A stretch of DNA of 64,000 nucleotides from Adineta ricciae (Eukaryota > Rotifera > Eurotatoria > Adinetida > Adinetidae). Shown here piece by piece: positions 1 through 36,979 of the stretch. The position numbers and the translations under genes are program-made. The notes under the pieces are model-generated. The model was given only the letters and a program-made list of their open reading frames with translations. It was not told the DNA's origin and searched no databases. Location: positions 18,370 through 82,369 of the forward strand of contig CAJNOJ010000394.1 of assembly GCA_905250025.1 (NCBI GenBank). Reading direction: 5' to 3'. The first letter of the stretch is position 1; each line of letters begins with the position of its first letter.

Positions 1-22
1 ACGAAATCAAAGACAGGAGATA

Positions 23-475
23 TTATTTAAGAAAAGAAGTAATAAATTCATTAAATGAATTACGAATCAATTCCAGAATACCGATGATTGTTCGCGCCAT
101 GTCGTTGATCCATTCAACGATATTTTTGATGACATCGATGATCTTTTTGAATATACGATTGACCCATGTTGTCACTTGATTAATACCGGTTGATGACAGC
201 GATACATATTGTTTGTATTGATTCATTCGCTCTGCATAGTCTGGACTTCGATCATCGGTCGGCCGTCGTGCCTTGATTTGGTCTCGTATTCCATTGACAC
301 GTGCAGTAACATCTTCAACGAAACGATCGGATTCACGATCGATCTGCTTTTCTAGTTCCACGACGTTGTTAGCATCGCGGTTTTGTGCTGCTGTTTCGAT
401 TGTATTTTGAAGAGTTCTTGCACGAGTTTCGATGAAAGTACGGAGAGGTTTTTCATGTGTATCTTGGAAGCTCAT
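23..475 (-). CDS. Small helical protein, family A (copy A1)
   Basis: A single coding exon of 150 aa; the start is the ATG at 475 (MSFQDTHE), which is shared by all three family members, although the frame stays open upstream. No signal peptide is seen. The protein reads as nearly continuous amphipathic helix. Residues about 50-125 hold the core shared with families B, C and D: a Val/Ile-rich helix, then IKARRPTD, then Y-x5-Y. The C-terminal ~50 residues (IIDVIKNIVEWIND and following) are strongly amphipathic. It lies head to head with the family B gene at 963. I do not recognise the family and assign no function. Confidence 0.7.
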   Translation of the reverse strand: MSFQDTHEKPLRTFIETRARTLQNTIETAAQNRDANNVVELEKQIDRESDRFVEDVTARVNGIRDQIKARRPTDDRSPDYAERMNQYKQYVSLSSTGINQVTTWVNRIFKKIIDVIKNIVEWINDMARTIIGILELIRNSFNEFITSFLK

Positions 476-962
476 GCTTGAGGGGAGAAAATGCGATGGA
501 TTATCGAAAACGACGAGCACTAATAGAAATATGATCAATCTTTTTATAACGAAGTATTAATGTATTAAAAACATGATTTTTACCTGGTGCGCTGGTTGGT
601 TTCTTTTTCGATATTATGTTGCCGAATACGATATGTTTTTGTCGACATATATATTCAATCTTTCGTGAGTACTGGGATTTTTACCTTTTTTTTCGTCCTA
701 ATTGACTATTAAACTATGCAGTCTCTCTTTGCTATTAGTTATAAAAATGTGTATTTGTACAGAAAATAGTCTAGGTGAGAAACATAAAAAGGAGCGCATG
801 GTCTGTTTTTATGATGATTTCATACGTTTTGATAATATTTCAGGTGATCAACAATATCTTTTCAAAGTAAGAATGGCTGGAATTCGATATGAATACATGC
901 GGTATAGATTACATTGTATGCAATGTACTGTTTTCCTTGTAGATTGAAATTCTGTCAAAATA
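476..962. promoter_or_regulatory. Divergent spacer between family A and family B genes
   Basis: This 487-nt gap separates two small-protein genes that face away from each other, so it must hold both promoters. A TATA-like run (catatatattc) lies near 646-656. The equivalent spacers at 4527-5009 and 32499-32968 are clearly related to each other and only weakly to this one. No other feature is seen. Confidence 0.4.
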
Positions 963-1400
963 ATGGCAAATTTCTCGTCATTCGATGAACAGTATCGACC
1001 GGCATTCCACAATAAACTAGATCAAAATGTTGTTGATTTCATGCAGCAGAAAATAGATCGTGCTCAACTTTTGAATGATGCTGACGAAGCAGAGAAATTC
1101 CTGGAGGATGCATGTGATCAATGTATTAACACAGTTACTGATCATGTAAAAGAAATCAAGGAATCGGCCAAACAGAAACGTGCAAGTTGTAAGACTCCTG
1201 CAGATGAGCAGAAATATACAGCATTCATTCAAGGAGTCGCAGCAGGTATTCAAGCAGCTCAATCGAAAATCGATCATATCTTCTGCCGCATCCATGATCT
1301 TATTACAACTGTGGTCGGTTGGATTCGAAAGGGCACTCAGTGGATCGCGAATGCTATCTCGGACGCTTTTACTTTCATTCGCTCTATTTTTATCAAATAA
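963..1400 (+). CDS. Small helical protein, family B (copy B1)
   Basis: A single coding exon of 145 aa starting MANFSSFD at a true ATG. It has no signal peptide and predicted helix throughout. The core (about residues 55-115) follows the pattern of the neighbouring families: V-x2-HV-x2-I-(K)-x5-K-R, a Cys-containing turn, a Tyr, then a second helix. The C-terminal segment TVVGWIRKGTQWIANAI is Trp-rich and amphipathic, as expected of a peptide lying on a membrane or packing in a helical bundle. Homologues are at 5010 and 32969. Family unrecognised. Confidence 0.7.
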   Translation: MANFSSFDEQYRPAFHNKLDQNVVDFMQQKIDRAQLLNDADEAEKFLEDACDQCINTVTDHVKEIKESAKQKRASCKTPADEQKYTAFIQGVAAGIQAAQSKIDHIFCRIHDLITTVVGWIRKGTQWIANAISDAFTFIRSIFIK

Positions 1401-1511
1401 ATTATCGGGCAATTCTTTTCAAAAGCTCATTGTAGACTGTGGCATGAACCGTTTTCGTTATTTCTCTTATTAATATTTTAGAAATAATTCTTCCTTTGAC
1501 TGAGTACTGGT

Positions 1512-2514
1512 ATGGCTTCAAATTGTGATTGTATCGAACCAATATTGGATGCAGTCGATGTCGTTAAATCTGATGCCAATGAAACAACAACTGAAGTAGC
1601 TATAGACGAATCGGCATCCAACGATGCTCCAAACGTACCGGATACTATCGATATTGTTAAATTCGATACTAATGAAACAACAACTGCCGTAGCTGTCGAC
1701 GAATCGACATCCAACAATACTCCAAACACGTCGGATACTATTTCTCAGGTAAAAGTAGACGAGGATCATTATCAGTTAAATATGGCTTTCTTTCGCGTGC
1801 ATGTGATTAGATCAAAAAGCAAGTCACAGACGAGTATTCAACAGCACCGAAAAATCACTCACGTGTAAGCTATGTCTATAGTCAATTATGATCTTATTAC
1901 CTTTTCTTGATTGATTTCTAGGGACAGAATACACACAGATACACGAGCCTAGCTAACAATCTTGCAAGTGTAAATATCTTGATAACTTTTGTATATATCA
2001 TATCATGATCCTACTTTTTCAGAGTACAATGACACTTGTTATTCAAAGATCGAAGCCACTAATTCTCAAATTACGTAATCCAGAGTATACTTGGTCGTGT
2101 AATGCCATTAAACCTCAAGGTAATATCGAATCGACGACCAATTCACTGGGTAATGAACTAGTTGCTCATGTTACAGCGACTGTGAACAGTATTCGGAATG
2201 AAGTCAAAAGTGCTCGTCCCCAACCAGACGAAGAAAACTATGAGCTAAAAATGGCTGCCTATCTAGAATTTGTGAAGTGTATCACACATATGATAAATAG
2301 CTTAACCGGAGTTTTTGACGATTTCCTAACCGAATATCGCAGACTTATTGATCAACTATGGGATCATCTTCAACAGTGTGCGCACCCAGATACCGACCGC
2401 TTTATTCAACAATTTCTAAGTCAAGTAGAAAAAATATTTCGTGATGCCGTGACAAATAAGATTGAGCTATTGTTCAAAGCGATCGATTCTAAATTTAACC
2501 CATCGGAACAATGA
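1512..2514 (+). CDS. Small helical protein, family C, four exons (copy C1)
   Basis: Proposed CDS is join(1512..1748, 1811..1864, 1922..1969, 2023..2514), 276 aa. All introns are GT..AG and phase 0, and the same model works in the copies at 5558 and 33516. Exon 1 is acidic and Ser/Thr/Asn-rich, exons 2 and 3 are tiny (18 and 16 codons), and exon 4 holds the conserved part: TLVIQRSKPLILKLRNP, then the shared helical core with VKSARPQPDEENY. Exon 1 is longer here than in the sister copies because of an internal duplication. The end is TGA after SKFNPSEQ. No known family is recognised. Confidence 0.7.
1557..1742 (+). repeat. Two 93-nt direct repeats inside exon 1 of copy C1
   Basis: Units 1557-1649 and 1650-1742 each encode 31 residues around a D-x-NETTT-x-VA-x-DES core. 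The sister genes at 5558 and 33516 have no duplicate and an exon 1 of 39 codons against 79 here. Unit length is a multiple of three, so the frame is kept. Confidence 0.85.
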
Positions 2515-3305
2515 CTGGGGTTTTGTTGAAATAGATCTATTTGTTTGTTTTGTATCTTTCGCACTCAAATAAACTGGAGGAGAGGCCTATCATATTTGAA
2601 CATGTACAAGCGATGGCAAATGTAGGTTCGTCATTGAAGTCCATTATTCCATGGAATTGCGCAAATCACAGTTTGTCACTATCAGATGCATGTTTCTGTT
2701 TCTTCTCTGATGAAATACGACGGTGAGATAAAAGAGACTCTCGACTAATCAGACATTCTCTGCGGATCCATGGTACATACTCGAATTTATGGTAGCTCCA
2801 ATTTTCTCTCACTTTCTCATTCGTAAATGACTTCAACAGCTTTGTTTTTGTTATTACGGATTTCACGTATTGGTTTCACGATCTGACGCTCAGATCATCC
2901 ATCGTGAAGTGTGTCGCCAGACCATTTGAGCTCAACAGATGTTGTTTTCTCTGAATGTCAACATTGGTACAACCGATCCGGCTCATCACTAAAGTCGACT
3001 GAGATACGAGATGGCGTTGTGTCAAAATTTCGGCTCAATCTATATCGAAAATTATTATGTACATGGACGGTCGGTAAGACTGGATGATCCTAATCGTGTA
3101 ATCACTTTTCAGTACATAAAAACGAATGCTATCAGCGACCCATGGAAACAATACAATCGCATCATTTATCTATTACATACTTTTAGCTCACACTTACATC
3201 TCATACCATGTTTAAAAGTAATACTTTTTCAACCGTTTATTATGAATATCTCGATTTGCACTGGAAAAAGGGCATCATGCAAGGTTATCAATGTTTCATT
3301 CACGT
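2515..3305. other. Gene-free spacer
   Basis: The first ~60 nt resemble the 3' flank of the sister family C genes (AATAAACTGGAGA block). The rest is not coding: open frames are short, lack ATG context and are not conserved in the sister unit. Nothing else recognised. Confidence 0.5.
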
Positions 3306-3981
3306 TCAATGACGAGATTGGTTTTGTTTAATTTGACTCAGCTTTTCTTCCAGAACATCGAACGGTTCGAGAAAAGTCTTTTTGACTTTTTCCTCCGTTC
3401 TACGAGCATGATTATCAAGCAATTGATCGACTCCTCGTGCATTGTTCTTGCAAATATCATCCCATAGTTGATTCATAAGTGCTTGTAGATCACTTAATAT
3501 GTCATCAGCGAGACTTTGAACTTTTTGAATGACTGGAACCATGGTATTCAATAGCTCTTGATAGATTTGCATCTTGGTAGTGTAGTCAGGATCTGACGGA
3601 TCAGGTCGTGCGCTTTTTATTCGTGTACGCAAGTCATTGATATTGGTCGTAAATGTGTTTTGAAGATCGCCAATCATTTCATCAACAAATGCGTCAAGTT
3701 GTTTGGAGTCTAGCGATGATAGATCAGGTTGTCGACTACCAGGCTTTAATTTCAGTACTAATGTTTTCAGCTTTTTATAGTTTTTACGAACTGATTCTGT
3801 GACCGTGTGCTAAACACAGAAATATGTGTACCAAAAGAAACTCCAAGAAATTTTTACCGTTAAAGGTATAGATGAAGGTGCACCTGCATTATTGTTATTA
3901 AATGACTATATTTGAAAAGAGGAGAGAAAATTAGTTTCCAAAGTCCTGAGTACATACCCCGAAGTGATCGAAATTCGACAT
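3306..3981 (-). CDS. Small helical protein, family D, three exons
   Basis: Proposed CDS is complement(join(3306..3809, 3858..3905, 3958..3981)), 191 aa, with phase-0 GT..AG introns. Exon 1 encodes only MSNFDHFG, exon 2 is 16 codons with an Asn run, and exon 3 begins TVTESVRKNYKKLKTLVLKL. Exon 3 aligns with exon 4 of family C (TVT..., LKL motif, IKSARPDPSDPDY, Y-x-E, LWDDI), so C and D are paralogues on opposite strands, and the 16-codon exon ahead of it is also shared. The truncated counterpart in copy B is at 31496-31953. Function unknown. Confidence 0.65.
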
Positions 3982-4073
3982 TTGTGATAATCTAATCTGA
4001 AATGGAAGAGTTCATAAAATATTAATAAAAACTTTGTCTGAGTCTTTCTTGCGAAGGAAAAAGGTATAAACAA

Positions 4074-4526
4074 TCATTCAAGAAAAGCTTTAACAAAATC
4101 ATTGAATGAATTACGAATCAGTTCCAGAATATTGATGACTGTTCGCGCCGTGTCGTTGATCCATTCAACGATATCTTTGATGACATCGATGATCTTTTTG
4201 AATATACGATTGACCCATGTTGTCACTTGATTAATACCGATGGATGACAGCGATACATATTGTTTGTATTGATTCATTCGCTCTGCATAGTCTGGACTCT
4301 GCTCGTCGGTCGGTCGTCGTGCCTTGATTTGGTCTCGTATTCCATTGACACGTGCAGTAACATCTTCAACGAAACGATCGGACTCACGATCGATCTGCTT
4401 TTCTAGCTCGGCGACATTGTTTGCTGTGCGATTGCGTGCAGCTGCTTCAATTGATTGTTGGAGAGTTCTTGCACGAGTGTCGATGTAAGAACGTAAGGCT
4501 GTTTCGTGTGTGTCCTGGAAACTCAT
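4074..4526 (-). CDS. Small helical protein, family A (copy A2)
   Basis: 150 aa, single coding exon from the ATG at 4526 (MSFQDTHETALRSYIDT). It is very close to the gene at 32046 in copy B and a little less close to 23-475. The core carries IKARRPTDEQSPDY followed by YKQYV. A 5' UTR intron is possible: reading the minus strand, a gag/gttata donor-like site and an attgcag acceptor just precede the ATG. It shares the 4527-5009 spacer with a divergent family B gene. Function unknown. Confidence 0.7.
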   Translation of the reverse strand: MSFQDTHETALRSYIDTRARTLQQSIEAAARNRTANNVAELEKQIDRESDRFVEDVTARVNGIRDQIKARRPTDEQSPDYAERMNQYKQYVSLSSIGINQVTTWVNRIFKKIIDVIKDIVEWINDTARTVINILELIRNSFNDFVKAFLE

Positions 4527-5009
4527 AACTGCAATAAGTAATATAACGATACTCTAGAAAAAAATCGATGATTAAATATAACCTCAATCTTTTATGGTGC
4601 AATAACGGTTTAATCCTAGTATGATGTTTATTCAGAAAAATATTTTTTCCCGATGTTTGCTGTTGAATTCGGCACTCCTATATATATGACACACATGCTT
4701 TTTTTATATAAGTGTGGATTTTTCCTTTCCTTTCCTTTCCTTTCTTTATCTTATTTTAGTGTGTTCTCTTACTCTTGATGTTGGTTTTTACCACACGTAT
4801 TTGCATTAACAATAATCTTTGCTGGAAGAGTGGGGAATATAAAAACAGACACGCGGTGATTGTCGGGACTTCGCAGTTTTTATTTACAGTTGTATGTAAT
4901 GACCAATACTTGTCTGATGAAAAACTTCCTTGAATAAGATATGAGTATATTTCTGAGACTATTTACATATTGCTCTATTTCAGTTATAGATTGAAGTTTT
5001 AATAACACG
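4527..5009. promoter_or_regulatory. Divergent promoter spacer (A2/B2)
   Basis: A block at about 4808-4880 (cttTGCTGGAAGAGTGGGG, then aatataaaaacagac) is almost unchanged at 32770-32840 in copy B, standing out from more variable flanks. A TATA-like tatatatatgac lies near 4680. A short (TTTCC)n run at 4721-4743 is interrupted in copy B. Shared control of the divergent pair is inferred. Confidence 0.45.
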
Positions 5010-5438
5010 ATGGCAAACTTTTCATCGTTTGAACAACAGTATCAATCAGCGCTGCATGACAAATTAAGTGAAAATGTCAATATAATGCAGCAAAAAGTGA
5101 ACCAAGCACAGAGTATGAGTGACGCCGATGCAGCAGAAAGAGCTCTTGACGAGGCGTGCGATGGATGTCTTAATCGAGTCGCTAATCATGTGAAAGAAAT
5201 TAAGGAATCAGCCAGACAAAAGCGCGCAAGTTGTAAGACACCTGCAGATGAACAAAGATATACAACATTCATCCAAGGAGTCGCATCCGGCATTCAAGCA
5301 ACTCAATCGTTAATTGACACGATCTTTACCCAAATCCGTAATCTTGTGGTAACTGTGGTCAGCTGGATTCGCATGGGCATATCTTGGATGGCAAGCACCA
5401 TAACAGACGTTTTCAATAGTATTCGTGCTTTTCTCTAA
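5010..5438 (+). CDS. Small helical protein, family B (copy B2)
   Basis: 142 aa, one coding exon starting MANFSSFEQQYQSALHD. It has the family B core (CDGCLNRVANHVKEIKESA, then KRASCKTPADEQRY) and the Trp-bearing amphipathic C-terminus (VVTVVSWIRMGISWMAS). Three Cys residues in the central part are shared with the copy at 963, which could allow metal or disulphide chemistry, but no known motif fits. Closest relative is 32969 in copy B. Confidence 0.7.
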   Translation: MANFSSFEQQYQSALHDKLSENVNIMQQKVNQAQSMSDADAAERALDEACDGCLNRVANHVKEIKESARQKRASCKTPADEQRYTTFIQGVASGIQATQSLIDTIFTQIRNLVVTVVSWIRMGISWMASTITDVFNSIRAFL

Positions 5439-5557
5439 TAATCTCTGTTACTCTTTTTTTATAAGAAAAGGAATCTTGCACGAAGTCACGTAAATTACTC
5501 TAGATATTTTTCTTTTAGTAATTTCAGATATACTTTTTCATTTCATTGGATATCGTT

Positions 5558-6501
5558 ATGGCTTCAAATGATGATTGTATTAATTCAGAATCAAACGCTA
5601 TGGACAATACAACACCCGCTATTAATGGATCAACAGTTGATAGTGATCAAAATGGTTTGAACGATGTTTCTAGGGTAATAAAACGCTATGAGAGATACTA
5701 TAGTTGGATAGTTTTCGAACTGAGAAGGAGACAGTTATAACTATATTCTTTCTAATCATTTTTGTTATGATCAGGTTGAAACGCAAGTCACAAACGAGCA
5801 TTCGACAGCACCGAAAACTCACTCGCATGTAAGCTATGCCTATAGTCTATTATGATCTTATCACCTATTCTTGATTGATTTCTAGGGACAGAATACACAC
5901 AGATATACGGATCTGACCACTAATCTTGCAAGTGTAAGTATACAATTTCCGATAAATGTGTGAATTACATCGCAGATCATTTTTTCAGAGCACAGTGACA
6001 CTTATTATTCAAAGATCGAAGCCACTAATTCTCAAACTACGAAATCCAAGCCACGCCTGGGGTGGATTAGGCAGTGCAGTCAAACCTCAAAATGATATCG
6101 AATCGACGATCAATTCACTGGGTGATGAACTAGTTGCTCATATCACAGCGACTGTGAACAGTATTCGGAATGAAGTCAAAAGTGCTCGTCCCCAACCAGA
6201 CGAAGAAAACTATGAGCTGAAAACGGCCGCTTATCAAGAATTAGTTAAGTCTATTACACATATCATGAATAACTTAACAGCAACCTTGGATGATTTCTTC
6301 ATCGAATATCGCAAACTTATTGATCGATTCTGGGATCATATTCGGAACTGTGCGGACTCAGATGTACCCGACTCTGTTCAACAATTTGAAAATCAAACAG
6401 AAAAAATATTTCGTGATGCCGTGACAAATAAGATTGAGCCATTGTTTAAAGCGATCGATTCTAAACTTAACCCATCGGAACAATCACTGGGGTTTTGTTG
6501 A
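5558..6501 (+). CDS. Small helical protein, family C (copy C2), extended C-terminus
   Basis: Proposed CDS is join(5558..5674, 5775..5828, 5886..5933, 5989..6501), 243 aa, with phase-0 introns. The start is the ATG at 5558 (MASNDDC). Exon 4 carries TLIIQRSKPLILKL, VKSARPQPDEENY and LIDRFWDHI. The sister genes stop with TGA right after NPSEQ; here that codon is TCA, so translation runs five residues further to a TGA ending at 6501. Function unknown. Confidence 0.7.
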
Positions 6502-6779: not shown

Positions 6780-7451
6780 ATGATTTCCGATGAATATACA
6801 TATGAATTAATCGATAATGAAGATGACGCGCGCATATGTGCTCAATTAATCGCTGACGAATTCGTCGCGGTTAATTCAATGGTTATTCTCGATCGGTTAA
6901 ATTCGCAAAGTATGTTTGACGAAGACACATGGCCGACAATGCTTGAAATGTTTCATGAACGATTATCATTCCTTGCACGGCATCGTCAATCAGGTGAAAT
7001 TGTTGCTGCTATCAGCGCATGCGATCTTTATTTAGCACAAAAACGACATCCCTACGATCCATCAAGTGCTCCTTCGACGATTCCATACTTCGATTTATTG
7101 GAAGATTTGGATAATATGTTTATTCATCATGATTTTCAACAAGAACTTAAACCAAACATGGTTTTACAGATTGTTGTCGGTGCCACTCGAGTGGAACACT
7201 CAGGCAAAGGTATAGCGACTCGATTGCGAACGATTCTATGCGAATATGCTCGCGACAAACGAGAATTTCAATATGCATTAGCGCAAACTACAAACGAAGC
7301 AACCCGTCATATATATGTGGATAAAATGGGTGGAATACCACTAACAACCATCGATCCGAAAACATGGATATGGAAGAAGAAAGGTGATCAAGTATGTCCT
7401 TATAAAGACCATACAGGTATACCTATTCCGAATATTTTAATAAAGTTATGA
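6780..7451 (+). CDS. GNAT-family N-acetyltransferase-like protein
   Basis: 223 aa, intronless, starting MISDEYTYELIDNEDDA. The central part gives a GNAT fold signature: a beta-strand VLQIVVGATRVEHSGKGIATRLR resembling motif A (the R/Q-x2-G-x-G/A acetyl-CoA pyrophosphate loop, here EHSGKGIA) followed by a helix, then ALAQTTNEATRHIYVDKMGG resembling motif B. Such enzymes move acetyl from acetyl-CoA to an amine; the substrate cannot be told. Similar animal proteins are arylalkylamine or glycine-type acetyltransferases. It is convergent with the sHSP gene, with a 137-nt gap. The copy B partner at 34778 differs at about ten residues. Confidence 0.75.
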   Translation: MISDEYTYELIDNEDDARICAQLIADEFVAVNSMVILDRLNSQSMFDEDTWPTMLEMFHERLSFLARHRQSGEIVAAISACDLYLAQKRHPYDPSSAPSTIPYFDLLEDLDNMFIHHDFQQELKPNMVLQIVVGATRVEHSGKGIATRLRTILCEYARDKREFQYALAQTTNEATRHIYVDKMGGIPLTTIDPKTWIWKKKGDQVCPYKDHTGIPIPNILIKL

Positions 7452-30355: not shown

Positions 30356-31262
30356 TAAACATCTGCAAGACAAAGTGATTCAATTTTTTACCAAAATGTT
30401 AAAGTGTACACTAGAACAACAGCTTTTCATCGCCGTTGAGTGCTGGTTTCATTTCTTCCACTCGTGCAGGAACTTGTTGAACAGCGTCAATCACTTTTTG
30501 TTTATTGATACCGACAATATCGAGCGCTTGAACTACAATCGGAGTTACATACTCTGCGCACTAAAATCATTTTTCGAGAAATTTTCGATCGTATCTATTC
30601 CAACACCGATCATTTTAACAGCTTTATATATTTCTTGTTCGAAATAACTTCTTAGTTGCTTGAAGTAAAGAATGACAAGTGTTGGACTATCTCGAGCTAA
30701 TTCTTAAAGAAGAATATGAACTGATTTTTTTTCCAATTCATTCATCCACTGTAATGTGATGAGATGTGATCTTTGAATAATGGACTCAACAACCTGCGAT
30801 ACTGTTTGAAGTGCACTCGGTGAATAATTCATTTAAATAGTACATGTTCCTCGTACATTTATTGGGCGATGCTGAAAATTTGGATGTGTCTTGCCAATCG
30901 ACGATCAAATTGGGAAGAACTGCTTATGTTGTTCGCACGTCTAAGAATCAACTGGGAACAATCATTTACATAAAAGAGTAGAACAGTTTATCGACATGTT
31001 TTCAATGAACATTCAACAGCTCTCAACTGTGTTTTATACACACGAATTAAACAGTTTTCTTCAGCTTACTCAATGCAACAGAACGCTTTTCAAAAAAGAT
31101 TTAAATCATTGCATTTAAATGTTACCGAAAATAGACTGTGTGGATAATGTTCTCACTAACTTTGTGTGCAGCACACATGCGTATATTCTCAAGCTTCTCT
31201 TTTCTGATAAATAAAACAATTGAGATTACTGCTGTTCTCATTGATAAATAAAAAGTAAAACG
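30356..31262. other. Remnant exon and spacer before the legumain gene
   Basis: About 30420-30650 aligns with the presumed upstream exon of the unknown gene in copy B (58493-58700) and is broken by stops. 30651-31262 has no match in copy B and no gene. Confidence 0.4.
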
Positions 31263-31494
31263 ATGCATCGACACTTACTTGTCTCAGTTGTAAGTATAAT
31301 ATTCCTTGGTATTAGTAGCAGTTGGGCAGCAAATTGGGCTGTTCTTGTTGCTGGCTCTTATGAATGGACGAACTACCGTCATCAAGCGGATGTTTGCCAC
31401 GCTTATCAAATTCTACATGAAAATGGTATTCCTGATTCAAATATTATTGTTATGATGTACGATGACTTAGCTCATCATTGGAGGTATCGATTTC
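31263..31494 (+). CDS. Legumain-like C13 cysteine protease, first exon only
   Basis: Starts at the ATG at 31263 with a signal peptide ([22 protein letters not shown]), then the mature legumain N-terminus: [20 protein letters not shown] and [20 protein letters not shown], then MMYDDLAH. Legumain is a lysosomal Asn-specific endopeptidase. A donor-like GAG/gtatcg at 31483/31484 probably ends the exon. The catalytic His and Cys lie in later exons, which are missing because the sequence jumps at the N at 31495. So this is a gene cut by the join, not a decayed gene. Confidence 0.85.
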
Positions 31495-31495
31495 N
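31495..31495. other. Single N at the copy A / copy B junction
   Basis: One undetermined base separates a legumain first exon or intron from the interior of a family D coding exon. Neither side continues across it, so it is a join between two contigs or haplotypes with unknown true distance. Confidence 0.9.
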
Positions 31496-31953
31496 TTTTG
31501 AATGACTGGAACCATGGTATTCAATAGCTCTTGATAGATTTGCATCTTGGTAGTGTAGTCAGGATCTGACGGATCAGGTCGTGCGCTTTTTATTCGTGCA
31601 CGCAAATCATTGATATTAGTCGTAAATGTGTTTTGAAGATCGCCAATCATTTCATCAACGAATGCGTCAAGTTGTTTGAAGTCTAGCGATGATAGCTCAA
31701 CTTGTCGACTACCAGGCTTTAATCTCAGTACTAATGTTTTCAGCTTTTTATAGTTTTTACGAACTGATTCTGTGACCGTGTGCTAAACAGATAAATATGT
31801 GTACGAAAAGAAACTCAAAAAATGTTTACCGTTAAAGATATAGAAGAAGACGCACCTGCATTATTGTTATTAAATGACTATATTTGAAAAGATGAGGGAA
31901 AATTAGTTTCCGAAGTCCTCAGTACATACCCCGAAATTATCGAAATTTGACAT
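31496..31953 (-). CDS. Family D small helical protein, 3' end cut by junction
   Basis: Partial CDS complement(join(<31496..31782, 31830..31877, 31930..31953)). It starts MSNFDNFG at the ATG at 31953, with the same two phase-0 introns as the gene at 3306-3981. The coding sequence is lost at the N after the PVIQ position, so the last ~70 residues are missing. What remains is intact and nearly identical to copy A. Confidence 0.65.
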
Positions 31954-32045: not shown

Positions 32046-32498
32046 TTATTCAAGAAAGGTTTTAACAAGATCATTAAATGAATCACGAATCAGTTCCAGA
32101 ATACTAATGACTGTTCGTGCCGTGTCGTTGATCCATTCAACGATATCTTTGATGACATCGATGATCTTTTTGAATATACGATTGACCCATGTTGTCACTT
32201 GATTAATGCCGATTGATGACAGCGATACATATTGTTTGTATTGATTCATTCGCTCTGCATAGTCTGGACTTTGATCGTCGGTCGGTCGTCGTGCCTTGAT
32301 TTGCTCTCGTATTCCATTGACACGTGCAGTAACATCTTCAATGAAACGATCGGACTCACGATCGATCTGCTTTTCTAACTCAACGACATTGTTTGCCGTG
32401 CGATTGCGTGCAGCTGTTTCAATTGTTTGTTGGAGAGTTCTTGCACGAGTGTCGATGTAAGAACGTAAAGCTGTTTCGTGTGTGTCCTGGAAACTCAT
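32046..32498 (-). CDS. Small helical protein, family A (copy B)
   Basis: 150 aa from the ATG at 32498 (MSFQDTHETALRSYIDT). It is the direct counterpart of 4074-4526, with scattered conservative changes (for example REQIKARRPTDDQ against RDQIKARRPTDEQ). The frame stays open upstream through a hydrophobic stretch to a TTG at 32573, but no ATG exists there and copy A does not conserve it. Confidence 0.7.
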   Translation of the reverse strand: MSFQDTHETALRSYIDTRARTLQQTIETAARNRTANNVVELEKQIDRESDRFIEDVTARVNGIREQIKARRPTDDQSPDYAERMNQYKQYVSLSSIGINQVTTWVNRIFKKIIDVIKDIVEWINDTARTVISILELIRDSFNDLVKTFLE

Positions 32499-32968: not shown

Positions 32969-33400
32969 ATGGCAAACTTTTCGTCGTTTGATCAACAGTA
33001 TCAATCAGCGTTGCATGACAAATTAACTGAAAATGTCAATATAATGCAGCAAAAAGTGAACCAAGCGCAGAGTATGAGTGATGCAGATGCAGCAGAAAGA
33101 GCTCTTGACGAGGCGTGTGACGGATGTCTTAATCGAGTCGCTAATCATGTGAAAGAAATTAAGGAATCAGCCAGACAAAAACGCGCAAGTTGTAAAACAC
33201 CTGCAGATGAACAAAGATATACGACATTCATCCAAGGAGTCGCATCCGGCATTCAAGCAACTCAATCATTAATTGACAAGATCTTTAACCAAATCCGTAA
33301 TCTTGTGGTAACTGTGGTCGGCTGGATTCGCATGGGCACATCTTGGATGGCAAGCACCATAGCAGACTTTTTCGATAGTATTCGTGCTTTTTTCTTATAA
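32969..33400 (+). CDS. Small helical protein, family B (copy B)
   Basis: 143 aa, one coding exon starting MANFSSFDQQYQSALHD. Counterpart of 5010-5438, with the same Cys positions and the C-terminal VVTVVGWIRMGTSWMAS helix. Start and stop contexts are conserved, supporting a real gene. Confidence 0.7.
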   Translation: MANFSSFDQQYQSALHDKLTENVNIMQQKVNQAQSMSDADAAERALDEACDGCLNRVANHVKEIKESARQKRASCKTPADEQRYTTFIQGVASGIQATQSLIDKIFNQIRNLVVTVVGWIRMGTSWMASTIADFFDSIRAFFL

Positions 33401-33515: not shown

Positions 33516-34447
33516 ATGGCTTCAAATGATGATTGTATCAATTCAGAATTAAACACTATGGACAGTACGACACCAGCTGTTAATGGATCAACAGTTGATA
33601 GTACTCAATATGGTTTGAACGATGTTTCCAAGGTAATAAAACGCTATGAGAGATAATGTAGTTAAATAGTTTTCGAACCGAGAAGAAGAGAAATATAACT
33701 GTATTCTTTCTAATTATTTTTGTTATGATCAGGTTGAAACACAAGTTACAAACGAGCATTCAACAGCACCGAACACTCACTCACATGTAAACTATGTCTA
33801 TATAGTCAATTATGATCTTATCATCTATCCTTGATTGATTTCTAGAGGCAGAATACACGCAGATATACGGATCTGGCCAATAACCTTGCAAGTGTAAGTA
33901 TATAATTCCCGATAAACGTGTGAATTATATCACAAATCATTTTTTTCAGAGCACAGTGACACTTGTTATGGAAAGATCGAAGCCACTAATTCTCAAATTA
34001 CGAAATCCAAGCCATGCCTGGGCAGGATTGGGCAGTGCAATTAAACCTCAAGATGATATCGAATCGACGATCAATTCACTAGGTGATGAACTGGTTGCTC
34101 ATGTTACAGCGACTGTGAACAGTATCCGTGATGAAGTCAAAAGTGCTCGTCCCCAACCAGACGAAGAAAACTATGAACTGAAAACGGCCGCTTATCAAGA
34201 ATTAGTTAAGTCCGCTGCACATATCATAAATAACTTAACAGAAGCTTTGGATGACTTCTTCATTGAGTATCGCAAACTTATTGATCAATTCTGGGACCAT
34301 ATTCAAAACTGTGCAAACTCAGATGTACCCGACTCTGTTCGACAATTTGAAAATCAAACAGAAAAAATATTTCGTGATGCGGTGACAAATAAGATTGAAC
34401 CATTGTTCAAAGCGATCGATTCTAAACTTAACCCATCGGAACAATGA
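33516..34447 (+). CDS. Small helical protein, family C (copy B)
   Basis: Proposed CDS is join(33516..33632, 33733..33786, 33846..33893, 33950..34447), 238 aa, with the same four-exon phase-0 structure as the genes at 1512 and 5558. Conserved parts are TLVMERSKPLILKL, VKSARPQPDEENYELK and LIDQFWDHI. It stops with TGA after NPSEQ, the ancestral-looking end that 5558-6501 has lost. Confidence 0.7.
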
Positions 34448-35587: not shown

Positions 35588-36456
35588 TCATTTGTTTTGA
35601 TCGTGTTCAGTATATGGTACTTCGATTGTGAGATGTCCATCATCAGTTAAATGTGATTGTAAATGATCTGTTTGCGTACCTGGTGGAAGAGTAATTGATT
35701 TGTAAAAGTAGCTTTTCTCCAAAGTTCGATCAGTGAGTGTGATATGTTCGCCTTGGATGATCAAATCATTGTTTTTCACGGAGACTTTGATCTGATCTGG
35801 ACGGTAGTTTTCCATTGGCAAAGACATTTCCAGTTTCTTCTTTTGTTCTTCACCATTGACAACTTTCGGTGTGAACGAAGACGTGTGAAAATGATGATAA
35901 TCGAACGATTGATCACGATTTTGACCATACGGAAGCAAATGTTGGTGATCAGCATCTGTTGCCGATTCGAGGTAACGTTGTTTGTGCTCATGATTATGCA
36001 GTGGGATGTCGACAATTAATAAATTATTTGGTGTTACATACGATACCAAATGATCAGCATCTAGATCATCAAAGTTAGAAATTTGGAAGAAGTTCTCTTG
36101 ATCTTACCAGCATGTTCATAAACAGGCTCGGGTAGATCGTACATTTTTCGTTCTTTTTCACTTTGGCCACTCTTTTTCGCTTCAATGAGCAAAAGACGAC
36201 CTTCGATCGTGGTTTGGATACTCTCGGGATCATATCCCGTGATGTCCAATTTGACACGATATTTGTCGCCGTAGGGTTGTGATTCTAACGCAGGTGCTAC
36301 TTTTTCTTCGTATTCTTGTCGTCGTTTTGGTCGATTGATCCAACGAAGTGATGCGAATGTATTCGACTTTGAATCTCTCCATGGATCAAATAGTTCGAAA
36401 TCATTTCCGAAATCACTCGAACGACGACGATCTCGATTTACTGGTAACGATGACAT
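35588..36456 (-). CDS. Two-domain small heat-shock protein (copy B)
   Basis: Proposed CDS is complement(join(35588..36060, 36108..36456)), 273 aa, with the 47-nt phase-1 intron at the same place as in 7589-8457. Both alpha-crystallin domains are intact. Changes are few (for example SVKNNDLIIQGEHITL against SVRNNDLIVQGEHMSL). Confidence 0.85.
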
Positions 36457-36979
36457 TGTCAACTGAATATTGATGTATGTGTTTGTCTCAATAAACAAAA
36501 TGAATGGCGATGTAACGGATCAACCAATCGAAAGAACATGAATGACGGAGGCAATCATTGTGACGAATTCTTTTTTTTTTAAATAATGAACAGTTCGAGT
36601 TAGATGTCGCTTCGATATGTATTTCTTTATCATCATCACATCAATATAGAAGAATAATATCGTATATAACTTCGTCGTTCGCTCAATTAATCACTACTAC
36701 ACCTCTCCAAAGGTGAGCACGAATGAAAATTTTTCTTTTTCGCATCAGTCTAATGTTTCTCGAGTGATGTGAAAGAAGGAAAAGTGAAAAACACATAAAC
36801 TATTAGTCGTCACTATAGCGTACACATATGTACACATAGCTAATCGAATGTTTTGAATTGCATCATCTTTTTGACAACCGAATAGAAACACGGCTTCTGA
36901 TTTGATGATTCATTTTCTGATGAAATCGATAAAAACGACGGCTAAATATTGATTTTCATTCACATTTCAGATACATAAA
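36457..36979. promoter_or_regulatory. Divergent sHSP/TDO spacer, copy B
   Basis: Counterpart of 8458-8982, strongly similar over its whole length with a few small indels. No clear heat-shock element. Confidence 0.4.

What the first reader, a model, noticed from the sequence alone, without database searches (positions are those of the whole stretch)
1..6501. Undescribed cluster: four families of small helical proteins sharing one core
Families A (150 aa), B (142-145 aa), C (238-276 aa, four exons) and D (191 aa, three exons) differ in N-terminus and exon layout. They share a core: Val/Ile-rich helix, I-(R/K)-x2-(I/V/A)-K-x2-R(P), a short acidic turn with Tyr, Y-x5-Y, then a second amphipathic helix with a conserved Trp in three of the four. 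C and D also share the TVT...LKL lead-in and a 16-codon exon. They sit as a D-, A-, B+, C+ unit. This looks like diversification by tandem duplication into a functional set (perhaps subunits of one helical assembly, or lipid/membrane-active proteins), with no family I recognise.
Basis: partly seen in the sequence, partly recalled or inferred. Interest (0 to 1): 0.8.

Follow-up and report, generated by a model that had tools for sequence, protein, structure and literature searches.

The report
Rotifer family of paired helical proteins
A rotifer genome carries an undescribed family of small helical proteins of two ancient types, a short one with a hydrophobic tail and a longer one, usually encoded side by side like two genes read from one transcript; what they do is untested.

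Summary
Families A, B, C and D look like real genes under purifying selection and share a homologous two-helix core: profile comparison 98.4%, E 6.6e-15, against 31.6% for the best of 30 shuffled controls. No library match is convincing. The host is a rotifer: 41 one-mismatch copies of the published rotifer spliced leader.

What changes is the grouping. There are two ancient classes: SHORT (A, B; one exon; hydrophobic C-terminus) and LONG (C, D; several exons; polar C-terminus), split with 100/99 support and found together at three of four loci. In the window cluster SHORT and LONG lie on one strand, 96-125 bases from stop to ATG, with an acceptor-like site 14-29 bases before the LONG ATG. So 'D- A- B+ C+' is best read as two divergent SHORT-LONG dicistrons, probably resolved by trans-splicing. 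The copy at 31.5-34.4 kb is the other haplotype, mis-joined at one N.

Best mechanism, inferred: SHORT binds membrane or lipid and LONG is its soluble helical partner. No expression or binding data exist here, and other eukaryotes could not be searched.

The parts
26..475 (-). A1, SHORT class, 150 aa, one exon
   Evidence: A1-A2 dN/dS 0.324
963..1397 (+). B1, SHORT class, 145 aa, one exon
   Evidence: B1-B2 dN/dS 0.156 with dS 1.48
1512..2514 (+). C1, LONG class, 276 aa, exons 1512-1748, 1811-1864, 1922-1969, 2023-2514
3306..3981 (-). D2, LONG class, 191 aa, exons 3958-3981, 3858-3905, 3306-3809 (stop included)
4077..4526 (-). A2, SHORT class, 150 aa, one exon
   Evidence: structure model
5010..5435 (+). 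B2, SHORT class, 142 aa, one exon
5558..6501 (+). C2, LONG class, 243 aa, exons 5558-5674, 5775-5828, 5886-5933, 5989-6501
3979..4076 (-). A2 stop to D2 ATG, 98 bases with both codons, acceptor-like site 14 bases before the ATG, no AATAAA
5436..5560 (+). B2 stop to C2 ATG, 125 bases with both codons, acceptor-like site 29 bases before the ATG, no AATAAA
1398..1514 (+). B1 stop to C1 ATG, 117 bases with both codons, acceptor-like site 29 bases before the ATG, no AATAAA
31496..31782 (-). Second-haplotype copy of D2, part of the core exon, cut at the mis-join
32049..32498 (-). Second-haplotype copy of A2
32969..33397 (+). Second-haplotype copy of B2, 143 aa
33516..34447 (+). Second-haplotype copy of C2, 238 aa, exons 33516-33632, 33733-33786, 33846-33893, 33950-34447

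Best explanation
One rotifer protein family with two ancient paralogous classes, whose working unit is a SHORT-LONG pair. Shown here: common descent of the classes; a predicted core of two long helices joined by a turn of the type RP...P-x-Y; purifying selection; SHORT and LONG genes 96-125 bases apart on one strand in the window cluster, with an acceptor-like site close before the LONG ATG; a rotifer spliced leader in the genome. Inferred: each pair is transcribed together and cut into two mRNAs by spliced-leader trans-splicing, so that the two proteins are made together. Inferred and less sure: both are cytosolic helical-bundle proteins; SHORT lays its hydrophobic, Trp-containing C-terminal amphipathic helices on a membrane or lipid surface; LONG, with the same core, a polar C-terminus and a low-complexity N-terminal tail, packs against SHORT through the shared core and keeps it soluble or recruits other factors. 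The array holds two such dicistrons head to head per unit and two units per haplotype.
For: Homology with controls. Classes on two sides of a 100/99 branch in a 23-row tree; both at C394/C395, C357 and C63, only SHORT at C561. Six measured SHORT-to-LONG gaps in the window cluster and on C395 of 96, 97, 98, 117, 117 and 125 bases; C357 d-e 142; acceptor-like site 14 or 29 bases before the LONG ATG in those six and 19 in C357e. TTYYAG within 38 bases before the ATG at 6 of 9 window gene starts, against 4.3% of 2773 window ATGs. Spliced leader: 46 matches with at most 3 mismatches, 41 with one, control 0. Strongest C-terminal amphipathic 18-mer has net charge 0 to +2 in 13 of 13 SHORT rows and -5 to 0 in 10 of 10 LONG rows; mean hydrophobicity of the last 50 residues is 0.38-0.80 in SHORT and 0.07-0.45 in LONG. 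Predicted helices agree over the core.
Against: No RNA, binding or localisation data. The other acceptor pattern in the same script, YYYNYAG, is found at only 2 of 9 gene starts against 8.4% background, and the nine include haplotype copies. Acceptors also precede SHORT genes, so they mark trans-splicing or 5' introns in general, not dicistrons. Typical gene spacing in this genome was not measured. C63 has the order LONG then SHORT at 489 bases, C561 has SHORT alone, and AATAAA lies between A1 and D1 in both haplotypes. The exact published leader is absent. The hydrophobicity ranges of the classes overlap and LONG helices are amphipathic too. Amphipathic helices can also pack in a bundle. Models are of medium confidence: pLDDT 77.7 and 80.5, pTM 0.55 and 0.65.
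Confidence: 0.4

Rival explanations
1. A soluble structural or cytoskeletal set: SHORT and LONG form hetero-oligomeric helical bundles or filaments, with the hydrophobic SHORT C-terminus buried in the assembly and no membrane involved.
For: Long helices in both models; PDB sequence hits at E below 0.01 are designed helical bundles or scaffolds apart from one apolipoprotein A-IV.
Against: SHORT C-termini are strongly hydrophobic, with net charge 0 to +2 and an invariant Trp.
Confidence: 0.2
2. Exchangeable apolipoprotein-like lipid carriers: amphipathic helices that open on lipid.
For: Weak Pfam matches to PF01442 in 7 of 23 members (best E 0.0028) and to PF07464 in 4 of 23 (best 0.0067) at E <= 0.1; apolipoprotein chains among weak PDB hits.
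Against: No member reached PF01442's 90-bit cut-off where bits were shown. PF01442 in the own genome gave 11 weak matches, none on this family's contigs, and rang in 13 of 14 control genomes, so it is not specific. No conserved signal peptide was seen by eye.
Confidence: 0.12
3. Two-component helical pore-forming effectors used against microbes or prey.
For: Two classes encoded together; hydrophobic helices in one class; a weak Pfam match of A1 to Bacillus_HBL, E 0.14 over 25 residues.
Against: No signal peptide seen by eye; no pore former among the 50 listed of 281 Foldseek matches at E <= 10, none at E <= 0.001.
Confidence: 0.1
4. Desiccation protectants comparable to LEA proteins.
For: Rotifer host. 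PMC10809525 (passages seen) reports LEA and heat-shock genes and genes of unknown function over-expressed on rehydration in Adineta vaga.
Against: That paper gave nothing that could be matched to these sequences. The models predict ordered helices with a conserved Trp and Pro-Tyr turn.
Confidence: 0.08

Closest known systems
Apolipoprotein A1/A4/E domain (PF01442) and apolipophorin-III (PF07464)
   Same: Amphipathic helices; weak scores in 7 and 4 of 23 members
   Different: No score near PF01442's cut-off, the profile is not specific in this genome, and the conserved turn and two-class pairing are not features of those families (recalled)
Trans-spliced animal operons (nematode type; recalled)
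   Same: Close gene spacing, acceptor-like site before the downstream ATG, spliced-leader genes in the genome
   Different: No transcript evidence here; the two partners are paralogues of each other
DUF3053 (PF11254)
   Same: B2 scores 24.7 bits against a cut-off of 23.9
   Different: Only 2 of 23 members match at E <= 0.1
Designed helical bundles in the PDB (e.g. 9r1o, 9ugr, 1p68, 4tql)
   Same: Binary hydrophobic-polar helix pattern; best E 0.0007 to 0.0048
   Different: Artificial proteins, so the likeness is of pattern, not descent

Membership tests
Apolipoprotein PF01442 | Score over the curated cut-off of 90 bits | tested here: not met
   13.4-16.8 bits in the members where bits were printed; 0 matches over cut-off in the genome
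Apolipophorin-III PF07464 | Score over the curated cut-off of 36.3 bits | tested here: not met
   14.8 bits for C2; 4 of 23 members at E <= 0.1, best 0.0067, bits not printed
DUF3053 PF11254 | Score over cut-off across the family | tested here: not met
   B2 24.7 bits, cut-off 23.9, but 2 of 23 members
Helical pore-forming toxins (HBL/ClyA type) | Fold match to solved members | tested here: not met
   A2 model: 0 matches at E <= 0.001, none in the 50 rows shown; D2 model never compared because the queue was full
Trans-spliced dicistron | Close same-strand spacing with an acceptor before the downstream ATG | tested here: met
   Six pairs at 96-125 bases; background spacing not measured
Trans-spliced dicistron | Spliced leader on the downstream mRNA and a shared precursor | not testable with these tools
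   No RNA data
Horizontally acquired gene | Relatives in bacteria, archaea or viruses | tested here: not met
   None with A2 in viral contigs, nor with the LONG alignment and D2 in genome contigs; SHORT was not scanned in genome contigs, and these scans favour close relatives
LEA-type protectant | Disorder in solution and induction on drying | not testable with these tools
   No biochemical or expression data

The most novel reading that the evidence does not exclude
A rotifer-specific two-subunit membrane system: a membrane-binding SHORT protein and its paralogous LONG partner, made together from trans-spliced dicistrons and multiplied as head-to-head dicistron pairs, that coats or reshapes membranes or lipid stores, perhaps on drying.
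Probability: 0.2. Interest if true: 0.65.

Novelty: new variant of a known kind. Interest (0 to 1): 0.4.

Why it matters
An animal operon whose two genes are ancient paralogues of each other would be an unusual arrangement (recalled, not tested here), and it gives two proteins of unknown function a clear prediction: SHORT and LONG bind each other. Rotifers have many lineage-specific genes of unknown function, some stress-induced (PMC10809525, passages). A family with a defined core, two classes and a short member list can be assayed.

Tried and rejected
Profile libraries. Pfam, 6 proteins: the only match over a curated cut-off is B2 to DUF3053, rejected because 2 of 23 members match. One search lists 25 of 64 weak families; it includes one member matching Fzo_mitofusin at E 2.3e-4, not followed up. 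NCBIfam, 6 proteins: nothing over cut-off. PHROGs: best E 6.9e-4, a tape-measure protein in one member. PADLOC was not searched. PDB by sequence: designed bundles and apolipoproteins, read as generic amphipathic helix. PDB by fold, A2 model only: 281 matches at E <= 10, none at E <= 0.001, best 0.48. The apolipoprotein lead was demoted. The likeness of the turn to type III needle proteins (PF09392, E 2.3) was rejected as chance. Transfer from bacteria or viruses has no support. A third tandem unit at 31.5-34.4 kb was rejected as the second haplotype. Paper searches listed nothing that names this family; of papers I saw listings, abstract starts, and passages of PMC3795323, PMC5916493, PMC10809525, PMC10665377 and PMC11258130. 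None was read in full.
Full report
Setting. The window is C394:18370-82369 of a 130.5-Mb genome in 1033 contigs. The rotifer spliced leader printed in PMC3795323 Table 1 (passage) occurs 46 times with at most 3 mismatches, 41 of them with one, against 0 for the backwards control; it occurs 0 times exactly. The host is therefore taken to be a rotifer. Synonymous divergence between haplotypes is 0.118-0.164 in 5 of 7 allele pairs, 0.239 for C2 and 0.269 for D1. PMC5916493 gives a mean homologue KS of 0.135 and 35.6% GC for Adineta ricciae (passages); 31 of 32 window bins lie at 33-40% GC and one at 30%. A relative of that species is plausible, not shown.

Assembly. Window 3523-30652 and 31496-58721 are a direct repeat in seven aligned pieces, 82-93% identical. 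Base 31495 is N, and the last 94 bases of contig C395 are 100% identical to window 31496-31589; the last 3000 bases of C395 also match window 433-2712 and 2944-3616 at 91.3% and 92.9%. So the window from 31496 continues C395, the second haplotype, mis-joined to the first. Each haplotype has two tandem units, not three.

Genes. The core exon of D1, unit 1's missing D, is at C394:17596-18099. Further members: C357 with three SHORT and two LONG, C63 with one of each, C561 with one SHORT. The seven protein queries of the own genome found no match outside contigs C394, C395, C357, C63 and C561 (E <= 0.001, E <= 0.1); the tool calls its counts lower bounds. Counting haplotype copies once, there are 16 loci: 9 SHORT and 7 LONG. 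No second copy of the C357 genes appeared when 3471 bases of that cluster were searched (40 of 187 candidates scored).

Homology and classes. SHORT against LONG: 98.4%, E 6.6e-15, 88 columns. Controls: reversed rows 27.0%, best of 30 heptad-block shuffles 31.6%. B against C (1.8%) and B against D (25.4%) are not convincing alone; B belongs through A (95.7%) and the other SHORT members (97.3%). A tree of 23 rows puts SHORT and LONG on either side of a 100/99 branch; inside SHORT the forks between loci are open, the root is arbitrary and the program warns of long branches. The split most simply predates the spread over loci.

Arrangement. By strand the unit is A then D on minus and B then C on plus. 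Distances from stop to ATG, both codons counted, are 98 (A2-D2), 96 (A1-D1), 125 (B2-C2), 117 (B1-C1), and 97 and 117 for the two pairs on C395. The script failed on the second-haplotype B2-C2 pair; coordinates give 121. C357 runs b-c-d-e with 150, 190 and 142; the C357 a-b gap is far longer and holds a repeat; C63 is LONG then SHORT at 489. An acceptor-like site lies 14 or 29 bases before the LONG ATG in the six measured pairs and 19 before C357e. TTYYAG within 38 bases upstream stands at 6 of 9 window gene starts against 4.3% of 2773 window ATGs; the pattern YYYNYAG stands at 2 of 9 against 8.4%; the nine include two haplotype copies. AATAAA or ATTAAA follows 5 of the 6 cluster-end or LONG genes checked (not C357b); between genes AATAAA is present only in A1-D1 of both haplotypes among the tight pairs. 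I read this as SHORT-LONG dicistrons resolved by trans-splicing. Only RNA can show it.

History. Between unit 1 and unit 2, bins of about 100 bases are 74-97% identical in A, 50-61% between A and B, 64-83% in B, 78-94% in the last exon of C and 73-97% in that of D. dS is 0.27 for A, 0.26 for C, 0.34 for D, but 1.48 for B. An old duplication with later gene conversion of A, C and D fits. dN/dS is 0.108-0.622 in the 12 of 14 pairs where it is defined (C and D by their last exon only).

Protein anatomy. The A2 model has helices 3-31, 35-69 and 80-149 (pLDDT 77.7, pTM 0.55); the D2 core exon has 2-21, 35-66, 76-120 and 124-165 (80.5, 0.65). The common part is the second helix, the RP...P-x-Y turn and the next helix. 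Mean hydrophobicity of the last 50 residues is 0.38-0.80 in SHORT and 0.07-0.45 in LONG; the strongest C-terminal amphipathic 18-mer carries 0 to +2 in 13 of 13 SHORT rows and -5 to 0 in 10 of 10 LONG rows; against shuffles its moment has z 1.7-4.1 in SHORT and 1.4-3.2 in LONG, so both are amphipathic. With a lipid-helix score recalled from HeliQuest (0.944 x moment + 0.33 x charge), 11 of 13 SHORT rows and 1 of 10 LONG rows exceed 0.68; formula and threshold come from memory, so this is a guide only. LONG genes carry short low-complexity exons before the core exon, with an intron directly before the TxT..LxLxL start. Signal peptides were judged by eye: the haplotype copy of A1 has a hydrophobic stretch and a Met upstream in frame, not shared by A1, A2 or its copy.

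Known families. In the libraries searched nothing survives scrutiny, and no relatives were found in bacterial, archaeal or viral contigs with the queries used. Apolipoprotein likeness is weak and non-specific. Other eukaryotes could not be searched, so 'rotifer-only' is unproven.

Verdict. Real, homologous, constrained, and not assignable to a known family with these tools. The most useful new reading is the SHORT-LONG pair as the unit; function remains inferred.

Noticed in passing
window 31495: Single N joins the two haplotypes in one contig; the last 94 bases of C395 equal window 31496-31589. A peptidase C13 gene start (31254-31493) is cut by the join.
   Followed up: yes
window 26-475 against 4077-4526; D1 copies on C394 and C395: A, C and D of units 1 and 2 are far closer (dS 0.26-0.34) than B (1.48), and D1 of haplotype 2 is closer to D2 (91.6% aa) than to D1 of haplotype 1 (86.3%), which suggests gene conversion.
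   Followed up: partly
G000:C357:2934-3704: Between C357 genes a and b lie inverted repeats of about 100 bases (2934-3036 and 3601-3704) with related copies on many contigs, like a small terminal-inverted-repeat element.
   Followed up: no
G000 contigs C6, C8, C43, C77, C79, C99, C146: Spliced-leader copies often stand as divergent pairs about 150 bases apart (about 370-470 on C79 and C146); all 41 one-mismatch copies begin with T where the published leader has G.
   Followed up: no
window 1512-1748: The first exon of C1 is twice as long as that of C2 (237 against 117 bases) and holds an internal repeat of about 30 residues (seen by eye).
   Followed up: no
window 6783-7448 and 36064-36519: Neighbouring genes look like a GNAT acetyltransferase (19.7 bits, cut-off 20.7) and a small heat-shock protein exon (20.4 bits, cut-off 20.8), both just under the Pfam cut-off.
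   Followed up: no
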